A stretch of DNA of 21,715 nucleotides from a virus. The translations under genes were made by a program, and so were the position numbers. Within the stretch, counting starts at the first letter, position 1. Every line of letters starts with the position of its first letter. The DNA lies in the IMG/VR virus record IMGVR_UViG_3300027896_000256, positions 1-21,715 of that record. One strand, given 5' to 3'. The notes beneath the pieces were generated by a model. The model had not been told where the DNA came from. It searched no databases and worked only from the letters and a program-made list of their open reading frames with translations. Below are positions 4,961 through 6,516 of this stretch, in pieces.

Positions 4961-5044
4961 TCAAAGAAATGATGCGAGGGTACGATGCTGGTCAGGCAAT
5001 TCTAACCAACGATCCAGTCGAATTGCATTTTGCCGAACCATGTC
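4961..5044 (-). pseudogene. Proposed 3' fragment of gene split by the TnpB element
   Basis: Immediately beyond the right end of the TnpB element, the minus strand is open from the TTGAC at 5042-5046 to a TGA at 4961-4963. It encodes DMVRQNAIRLDRW followed by about 14 more residues, ending LASFL. The composition is protein-like, with an amphipathic helix. If the element is removed between its two TTGAC copies, this frame joins in phase to the frame of the fragment at 6232-6516 and gives a continuous protein of about 121 residues ending 50 bases before the polymerase promoter motif. The fragment alone has no visible ribosome site. A plus-strand reading of the same bases is also open, so the assignment is an inference. 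Confidence 0.4.
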
Positions 5045-5200
5045 AACTACCCACGACCCTAAAGGGTCGGGGCTTGTAAGACCCTGACACTTGCCAAGGA
5101 TTTACATACATTCGGCGTATTGACTGACGCCTGCCCATAAGTCAGATTTGTGGTCTGTGATACGGGAAGTCTGGATACTTTTGCAATGTTAATTGCTGCA
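5042..5200 (-). ncRNA. Probable omega RNA region at the tnpB 3' end
   Basis: TnpB guide RNAs are normally made from the 3' part of tnpB plus the right end, with the guide formed by the bases just beyond the element. Here the transcript would end in the right-end hairpin and TTGAC, and the first guide bases would be ATGGTTCGGCAAAATG. The 5' limit (5200) is only a rough guess from the family; only the hairpin is directly visible. Confidence 0.4.
5050..5072 (-). repeat. Right-end hairpin of the TnpB element
   Basis: CCC(A)CGACCC-TAAA-GGGTCGGGG on the plus strand forms a 9-bp stem with one bulged A (5053) and a TAAA loop. The tnpB stop codon (TAG on the minus strand, 5059-5061) lies at the loop. 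This matches the usual right-end structure of IS200/IS605 elements. Confidence 0.75.
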
Positions 5201-6204
5201 TTAATATCCGCATCGTATATCAATCCGTTCTTCGAGTAAAATCTACAACCTCGTCTTTCACCTTCAACCTTCCCTGTTACAGAATCGGTTTTAGAAGTGT
5301 TGTACGGGCAAACTAACACAACATGCTTTCCCATGTTGGTTGCCTTATAGGTTATTACTCTGCGAAGTTCATATAATGGAACTTGTGATATACTATGCTT
5401 ATTCTGGTATGGATTTTTCTTTCGTTTTATAGATTTGAGATTTTCTAAACAAATTGTATCGGCTTCTGTATTAAGAATGAGATTAGCAATTAAGTGAGTC
5501 TGGTTTTTATTTTGATGACGTTCTTTCCTCCTGAGAGAATATCTTAATTTTCTACGAGCACTTTTTGTCCCACGAGATTTTAATGCGTCTTTTTGATGTC
5601 TTAATCTTCGTTTTCTTTCATTGAAACATTTGTCGATAATCAATTTTCCTTCACTTGTGGCAGCACTTCGTCTAACGCCTAAATCAACTCCCAATGCCAA
5701 TCTCTGTTTTACTTTTTCTTGTTTATTCTCAAAAGATAAAGCAATATAGATACTTCCGTTATGTTCATAGATAAGCGGGTCTTTATATGAATATTTCTCA
5801 AGTAGTTCCTTTAATCGGGGATATACCACGAACTTATAGGTTTGCCTCTTTCCTGTGGTAGTAATACGAATAGAGAACTTATCCGGGATAGAATAAAGTC
5901 GTTTATCCAGTCGCATTGAGAGATTTTTCTTTACGATTGGTTTAGAAATCTTATGTTTGTTGGATTTAACAGACCTATATCCAGCCAATACATCATGTTC
6001 TGCTCTAATAATGACTTGGGCAGGAATTTCTGGATTTGACTTGCGGGCATTCTTATAGACTTTGGAATGGAGGATTACAAGGGATTTAGTTTTTTCCGTA
6101 AATTGTTCTTTGGAGGCGATATTATATACTAATTGCTCCATTTGGAGGAGTTTCCTTAGTTCTTCGGTATTTCCGAGCAATTTTGTATTATATGTAATCA
6201 TCAT
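5059..6204 (-). CDS. tnpB: TnpB RNA-guided endonuclease (IS200/IS605 OrfB)
   Basis: This 381-residue protein has the TnpB layout: an N-terminal helical/wedge region, then a split RuvC-like nuclease. RuvC-I is ALGVDLGVRRSAATS (D174), RuvC-II is DTICLENLKSIKRK (E254) and RuvC-III is YDADINAAINIA (D331/D333), so the catalytic triad is intact. A basic helical linker (residues 196-230, many Arg/Lys) lies between RuvC-I and RuvC-II, as expected for RNA binding. The usual zinc ribbon (two CxxC pairs between RuvC-II and III) is degenerate: the segment YNTSKTDSVTGKVEGERRGC keeps a single Cys (C320). I recall cysteine-poor variants like this among TnpB proteins, so it need not be inactive. The start is ATG-ATG at 6204/6201. 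The C-terminus runs into the right-end hairpin. In phages, TnpB is thought to favour element retention. Confidence 0.93.
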   Translation of the reverse strand: MMITYNTKLLGNTEELRKLLQMEQLVYNIASKEQFTEKTKSLVILHSKVYKNARKSNPEIPAQVIIRAEHDVLAGYRSVKSNKHKISKPIVKKNLSMRLDKRLYSIPDKFSIRITTTGKRQTYKFVVYPRLKELLEKYSYKDPLIYEHNGSIYIALSFENKQEKVKQRLALGVDLGVRRSAATSEGKLIIDKCFNERKRRLRHQKDALKSRGTKSARRKLRYSLRRKERHQNKNQTHLIANLILNTEADTICLENLKSIKRKKNPYQNKHSISQVPLYELRRVITYKATNMGKHVVLVCPYNTSKTDSVTGKVEGERRGCRFYSKNGLIYDADINAAINIAKVSRLPVSQTTNLTYGQASVNTPNVCKSLASVRVLQAPTL

Positions 6205-6207
6205 ATA

Positions 6208-6236
6208 TAAGTATCATAGTTTTTGGAAAAAGTCAA
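6208..6236 (-). promoter_or_regulatory. Possible sigma70-like promoter of tnpB
   Basis: The minus strand has TTGACT (plus 6231-6236) and TACTTA (plus 6208-6213) separated by 17 bases. The predicted start of transcription would fall at the tnpB ATG, giving a nearly leaderless message. The TTGAC here doubles as the proposed TAM, so the match may be coincidental. Confidence 0.3.
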
Positions 6237-6516
6237 GTTTTTTATGAAATAGATGAGAAATAATTAATGGCGGGCATTCCTCCCACACTCTAAAGAGAGT
6301 GGGTTTCCTGCCCGCACCGAGATGACACTCGGGGCATTCTACAAAAAACAAGTCCCCATCTCGATTAACCGCATGAAGATGTTGATTTTGCTTATAGCCT
6401 TTTACCTCGGCAACAATGTCGAGTGGTTTTGCTTCTTGTTCACCCATTGAATTATTTTCAGTAATCATATATTTCTTTGTTGCAATCTCCGCATCTATTT
6501 TAGCAAGGCGAGACAA
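6214..6516 (-). pseudogene. 5' part of a small Cys-containing gene, apparently interrupted by the TnpB element
   Basis: An open frame of 100 codons starts at TTG 6516, overlapping the end of the upstream gene behind a GGGG at suitable spacing; ATG codons at 6468 and 6447 are alternatives. The phage-like part contains EAKPLDIVAEVKGYKQNQHL and then FFVECPECHLGAG (C61, C64, H65) and C81, a possible half zinc site. The last six residues before the present stop come from the TnpB element if its left border is the TTGAC at 6232-6236. Joining codon 95 (Asp) to the frame at 5044 gives about 121 residues without a stop. Codons 68-82 run through a compound hairpin that looks IS-derived, so the gene may carry an older insertion scar. 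Function unknown. Confidence 0.5.
6270..6315 (-). repeat. Compound hairpin of IS200/IS605 end type
   Basis: GCGGGCA (6270-6276) pairs perfectly with TGCCCGC (6309-6315). Inside, CCCAC (6282-6286) pairs with GTGGG (6299-6303), and after an A-A mismatch CTC pairs with GAG around a TAAA loop. The minus strand has AGGAAACCC and GGGAGGAAT arms and a CTTTAG tip like the right-end hairpin at 5050-5072. It is either the left-end hairpin of the tnpB element or the scar of another element. Confidence 0.65.

What the first reader, a model, noticed from the sequence alone, without database searches (positions are those of the whole stretch)
4961..6516. TnpB element with TTGAC at both ends interrupts a small gene; removing it restores an in-phase reading frame
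On the minus strand TTGAC precedes the element (plus 6232-6236) and ends it (plus 5042-5046). Joining at these copies links codon 95 of the frame starting at 6516 (Asp, GAC) directly to ATG GTT CGG at 5041 in the same phase, giving about 121 codons that end 50 bases before the polymerase promoter motif. The omega RNA guide, taken from the bases after the right end, would match exactly this restored empty site next to a TTGAC TAM, which is what the TnpB retention model predicts. Against it: only 27 bases separate this left border from tnpB, with no left-end hairpin between them.
Basis: partly seen in the sequence, partly recalled or inferred. Interest (0 to 1): 0.62.

Follow-up and report, generated by a model that had tools for sequence, protein, structure and literature searches.

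The report
IS605-type TnpB element inside phage gene

Summary
The element is real, but its left border and predicted TAM must be redrawn. It is a 1,280-bp tnpB-only member of an IS200/IS605 lineage of tailed phages (window 5042-6321, minus strand). Their left end is the hairpin at 6270-6315, which travels with the element, and the border lies just after the target pentamer: TTCAT in 16 of 19 insertions, GTCAT in this window and L037, TTCAC in one. The left search pattern required such a motif, but three related phages with empty or near-empty sites break at TTCAT. Removing 5042-6321 joins CPECH to MVRQN in the same phase, because the two borders differ by 90 bases; this gives 91 codons, not 121. 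The left part looks coding; the right part is ambiguous, and no uninterrupted homologue was found. The nuclease looks functional (RuvC D-E-D intact, dN/dS 0.08-0.16). Inferred mechanism: Y1-transposase peel-and-paste in trans, with TnpB cutting empty sites. New member of a known kind.

The parts
5042..6321 (-). complete tnpB-only IS605-type element (1,280 bp)
   Evidence: borders set by comparison with relatives (1,275-1,350 bp without tnpA) and by empty or near-empty sites of relatives
6322..6326 (-). left flank and target GTCAT (variant of the family TTCAT); predicted TAM of this TnpB
   Evidence: same place as TTCAT in 16 of 19 insertions and GTCAT in L037; the search pattern required [TG]TCA[TC], so the empty sites are the independent support
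6270..6315 (-). left-end hairpin: outer stem GCGGGCA/TGCCCGC, internal loop, inner stem, TTTA loop
   Evidence: fold z -4.2, no shuffle as good; outer stem changes sequence but stays paired in relatives, e.g. TCGTTGC/GCAACGA, GCAA/TTGC, AGTTGC/GCAACT
5059..6204 (-). tnpB, 381 codons, RNA-guided nuclease with RuvC residues D174, E254, D333
   Evidence: NF040570 107.9 bits (cut-off 100); PF07282 48.9 bits (cut-off 26.3); dN/dS 0.08-0.16
5042..5076 (-). right end CAAG-hairpin-TTGAC; 3' end of the predicted omega-RNA scaffold
   Evidence: TTGAC in 23 of 23 relatives; stem re-paired with different sequences; omega RNA role inferred
5022..5041 (-). predicted guide (first about 20 bases after the right end)
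   Evidence: inference from ISDra2 TnpB (PMC8612924)
6322..6516 (-). left part of the interrupted gene (65 codons from TTG; ATG at 6468 or 6447 also possible), ends ...FFVECPECH
   Evidence: best coding score of six frames, +0.208 per codon
4961..5041 (-). right part of the presumed interrupted gene, MVRQNAIRLDRWLELPDQHRTLASFL and stop
   Evidence: in phase with the left part; coding score weak, +0.061 per codon
   Evidence: conserved in L005 and L006 downstream of the left-end hairpin

Best explanation
A tnpB-only (IS1341-like) member of a phage-borne IS200/IS605 lineage inserted 3' of GTCAT on the minus strand, inside what is probably a small gene upstream of the DNA polymerase gene of a T4-like phage. 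Mobility would come from a Y1 transposase (TnpA) supplied in trans by relatives that carry tnpA next to tnpB. [quoted passage not shown] TnpB, with an omega RNA made from the 3' end of its own transcript plus about 20 bases of flank, would cut empty copies of the site next to the (T/G)TCAT TAM, so that repair restores the element. Shown here: the borders, the conserved ends, empty or near-empty sites of relatives, selection on TnpB, and the read-through frame. Inferred: transposition in trans, the omega RNA, the cutting and the TAM.
For: Relatives in unrelated flanks share the end structures. 19 left borders: TTCAT 16, GTCAT 2, TTCAC 1; 23 of 23 right ends TTGAC. Related phages break at TTCAT: the L007 site in L071 (70% over 426 bp, crossing the join), the L009 site in L063 (80% over 54 bp across the join), the L017 site in L060 (left side to TTCAT, right side rearranged). 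Hairpins keep pairing with different stems. Y1 transposases lie in three phage records of the set, one beside a tnpB of the same family with the same ends. TnpB families and purifying selection. Insertion 3' of the target with the TAM equal to the target is the published ISDra2 rule (PMC8612924), and in Sulfolobus the TAM is the outside site while the element's own end differs (PMC11043419).
Against: No empty site is known for this very insertion: no homologue of the interrupted gene was found. The target here is GTCAT, shared with only one distant relative. The left-border pattern allowed only [TG]TCA[TC], so the logo is partly built in. The right 26 codons score weakly as coding and a plus-strand frame scores higher. 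No tnpA in this 21.7-kb fragment. The zinc-ribbon cysteines are lost in the whole family.
Confidence: 0.87

Rival explanations
1. One reading: the element runs from the TTGAC at 6232-6236 to the TTGAC at 5042-5046 and TnpB uses TTGAC as TAM.
For: Both motifs exist and the join is in phase.
Against: The left TTGAC is conserved inside the element in L005 and L006, and the hairpin outside it travels with the element; relatives' empty sites break at TTCAT; the 30 codons between the two borders score as non-coding.
Confidence: 0.02
2. The element is as described, but it does not split a gene: the left frame is real and the 26 codons on the right are not part of it.
For: Right part scores weakly and ambiguously; most relatives sit next to a start codon and not within a gene; no homologue of the joined protein.
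Against: The left frame is clearly coding up to the border and has no stop before the element; the right side stays open for 26 codons in the same phase.
Confidence: 0.25
3. TnpB is no longer a mobile-element nuclease but has been kept by the phage for another role, for example a guide-directed repressor (TldR-like) or a weapon against co-infecting phages.
For: Found only in viral contigs here; strong purifying selection; phage TldRs exist (PMC13418256).
Against: RuvC D-E-D intact in all 11 aligned sequences; both ends intact; relatives lie at many different sites.
Confidence: 0.08

Closest known systems
ISDra2 and its TnpB (Deinococcus radiodurans, IS200/IS605 family)
   Same: end hairpins, insertion 3' of a pentamer, tnpA and tnpB together in full copies (L019), RuvC nuclease, guide predicted after the right end
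   Different: target TTCAT/GTCAT instead of TTGAT; no tnpA in this copy; zinc-ribbon cysteines lost; phage-borne
IS1341-type tnpB-only elements
   Same: tnpB alone between IS605-type ends
   Different: different target and carrier; nothing further compared here
IS608 (Helicobacter pylori)
   Same: target kept outside at the left (TTAC there), a different sequence inside at the right end, short guide sequence 5' of each hairpin (PMC5934647)
   Different: sequences differ; here the bases 5' of the hairpins are GGAA (left) and CAAG (right)
TldR nuclease-dead TnpB relatives of prophages
   Same: TnpB relative in a phage
   Different: active-site residues intact and transposon ends intact here

Membership tests
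TnpB (RNA-guided nuclease) | profile match above curated cut-off | tested here: met
   NF040570 107.9 bits, cut-off 100; PF07282 48.9, cut-off 26.3; matches to solved TnpB 8bf8/8h1j at E 5e-8
TnpB (RNA-guided nuclease) | RuvC catalytic D-E-D | tested here: met
   D174, E254, D333 invariant in 11 sequences
TnpB (RNA-guided nuclease) | C-terminal zinc ribbon with four cysteines (common in TnpB, not required by the curated model) | tested here: not met
   at most one of the cysteines left, family-wide; zinc-less TnpB subfamilies are known to me from memory only; the curated TnpB model is passed all the same
TnpB (RNA-guided nuclease) | omega-RNA-guided, TAM-dependent cutting | not testable with these tools
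   needs biochemistry
IS200/IS605 element | subterminal hairpins at both ends that travel with the element | tested here: met
IS200/IS605 element | insertion 3' of a fixed short target without target duplication | tested here: met
   met for relatives by empty or near-empty sites; inferred for this copy
IS200/IS605 element | Y1 transposase acting on these ends | tested here: inconclusive
   none in the window fragment; PF01797 in 3 of 11 phage records, and beside a same-family tnpB in L019/L027
TldR | inactivated RuvC site | tested here: not met
   active-site residues intact

The most novel reading that the evidence does not exclude
A phage-confined IS605 lineage whose target TTCAT is the complement of the common start ATGAA, so that it settles right at gene starts, with TnpB acting as a homing drive between co-infecting phages; some copies also carry an HNH-like gene between tnpA and tnpB.
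Probability: 0.25. Interest if true: 0.55.

Novelty: new member of a known kind. Interest (0 to 1): 0.33.

Why it matters
It gives a well-bounded phage TnpB element with a testable TAM, (T/G)TCAT, and it shows how easily a matching pentamer in phase can mislead: the right end's last bases are not the TAM. About 30 related copies, some with tnpA and some with natural empty sites in other phages, make the TnpB retention or drive idea testable in phages.

Tried and rejected
DUF7101 match of the joined 91-aa protein (E 0.03-0.05): rejected, because shuffled right halves give equally good matches to other families. Homologues of the interrupted gene: none in IMG/VR, GenBank phages or 25 related records; the weak hits look like hairpins of other elements read as protein, and the 22% hit is not convincing. 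Relatives in 84,980 bacterial and archaeal genomes: none by two peptide-pattern scans, which are of limited sensitivity. Rfam: nothing. AlphaFold model of TnpB: mean pLDDT 56.5, pTM 0.43, not used. MAFFT alignments of the ends misplace the window's stem by one base, so pairing was counted by script; that script's automatic stem choice fails for several left ends (low inner-stem counts there are a parsing fault) and was read together with the sequences.

Full report
What is there. The minus strand of window 5059-6204 codes for a 381-residue TnpB. The surrounding genes are those of a T4-like phage: family B DNA polymerase (closest isolate Microcystis phage Mel-JY01, 38.7%; closest contig 55%), a weak clamp match, tail tube, exonuclease, glycosyltransferases.

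Where the element ends. TnpB relatives were fetched from IMG/VR (31 loci, one of them a short fragment; 48-86% identity). Read side by side, they share the right end CAAG-hairpin-TTGAC and then diverge; TTGAC closes 23 of 23. On the left they share a hairpin with GGAA(A) before it and AGGA after it, and diverge outside a pentamer: TTCAT 16, GTCAT 2 (this window and L037), TTCAC 1 of 19. My search pattern demanded [TG]TCA[TC] on the left and TTGAC on the right, so these counts are not free of bias; in a few distant relatives (L028, L031, L032) and the divergent copy L015 one or both ends were not found. Independent support comes from related phages: the L007 and L009 sites are aligned straight across the predicted join in L071 and L063, and the L017 left flank matches L060 exactly up to TTCAT, with the right flank rearranged there. 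The L030 site is not a clean empty site: L059 has about 465 bp of other sequence in place of the element. For the window the same anatomy puts the border at 6321/6322, after GTCAT, and the element is 1,280 bp; relatives without tnpA are 1,275-1,350 bp.

The window's AAAAAACTTGACTTTTTCC has the counterpart AAAAAGATTGACTTTTTCC in L005 and L006, inside their elements, at unrelated insertion sites and downstream of their hairpins. The hairpin at 6270-6315 folds better than any of 200 shuffles (z -4.2), and its outer stem is replaced by other, equally paired sequences in relatives.

The interrupted gene. With the corrected border the frame from 6516 runs ...FFVECPECH and continues MVRQNAIRLDRWLELPDQHRTLASFL and stop, 91 codons. 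Both junctions are in phase because they differ by 90 bases. The left 65 codons have the best coding score of all six frames; the right 26 score +0.061 per codon, with 14% of non-coding open stretches as good and 14% of real ones as poor, and a plus-strand frame scores higher. One third of random stretches of this length are open. No homologue was found, and the one profile hint failed a shuffle control. I therefore hold the interruption as likely, not shown. As it stands, the frame runs into the element and stops at 6214 (100 codons).

Is it functional. D174, E254 and D333 are invariant, and dN/dS against relatives is 0.08-0.16 (synonymous sites are close to saturation, so the ratio is approximate), so TnpB has been under selection. 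The zinc-ribbon cysteines are missing in the whole family. No tnpA lies in the window, which is only a fragment. Y1 transposase genes occur in three of eleven related records; L019/L027 is a complete tnpA-tnpB copy with the same ends at TTCAT and TTGAC.

Mechanism. By the published rule for ISDra2, insertion is 3' of the target, the target is the TAM, and the guide is the flank after the right end (PMC8612924); in Sulfolobus too the TAM is the outside site and not the element's own last bases (PMC11043419). IS608 keeps different left and right cleavage sites (PMC5934647). So TTGAC here is the right cleavage site and GTCAT the predicted TAM. A gene-drive role of such TnpBs has been reported for plasmids (PMC11870625, preprint). 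For this element all of that is inference.

Insertion sites. In joined flanks, 13 of 19 insertions lie directly 5' of a start codon on the other strand, against 12.6% of all TTCAT sites in the control contigs. The binomial p value of 3e-8 assumes independent sites and a control that includes sites within genes; selection against insertions in genes could explain the excess. The window copy is an exception.

Novelty. A new member of a known kind.

Noticed in passing
L005-L037, 19 left borders: 13 of 19 insertions abut a start codon (ATGAA or ATGAC) on the opposite strand, against 12.6% of TTCAT sites in related contigs; selection against insertions within genes is not excluded.
   Followed up: partly
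L020 396-1872 with L024; L074 4189-6423 with L021: In two phage contigs an IS605-type element carries, between tnpA and tnpB, a 124-136-aa gene and a 161-aa gene with an HNH-like cysteine pattern that overlaps or abuts the start of tnpB; no Pfam match for either in the L020 copy.
   Followed up: partly
window 5059-6204 and relatives: The TnpB family has lost the zinc-ribbon cysteines (TSQTDSVTGK..GERRGCRFYSKNG) while keeping the RuvC residues.
   Followed up: partly
L059 7986-8451: At the site where L030 has its element, the related phage G009 has about 465 bp of other sequence instead, so the element replaced it or the region was rearranged.
   Followed up: no
L024 4156 onward: Directly after the right end of this copy lies what looks like the 3' end of another tnpA (ETIKEYLDNQ), suggesting a nested insertion.
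   Followed up: no
L074 10867-12003: G008 holds a further tnpB-like reading frame about 4.4 kb from the HNH-carrying element.
   Followed up: no
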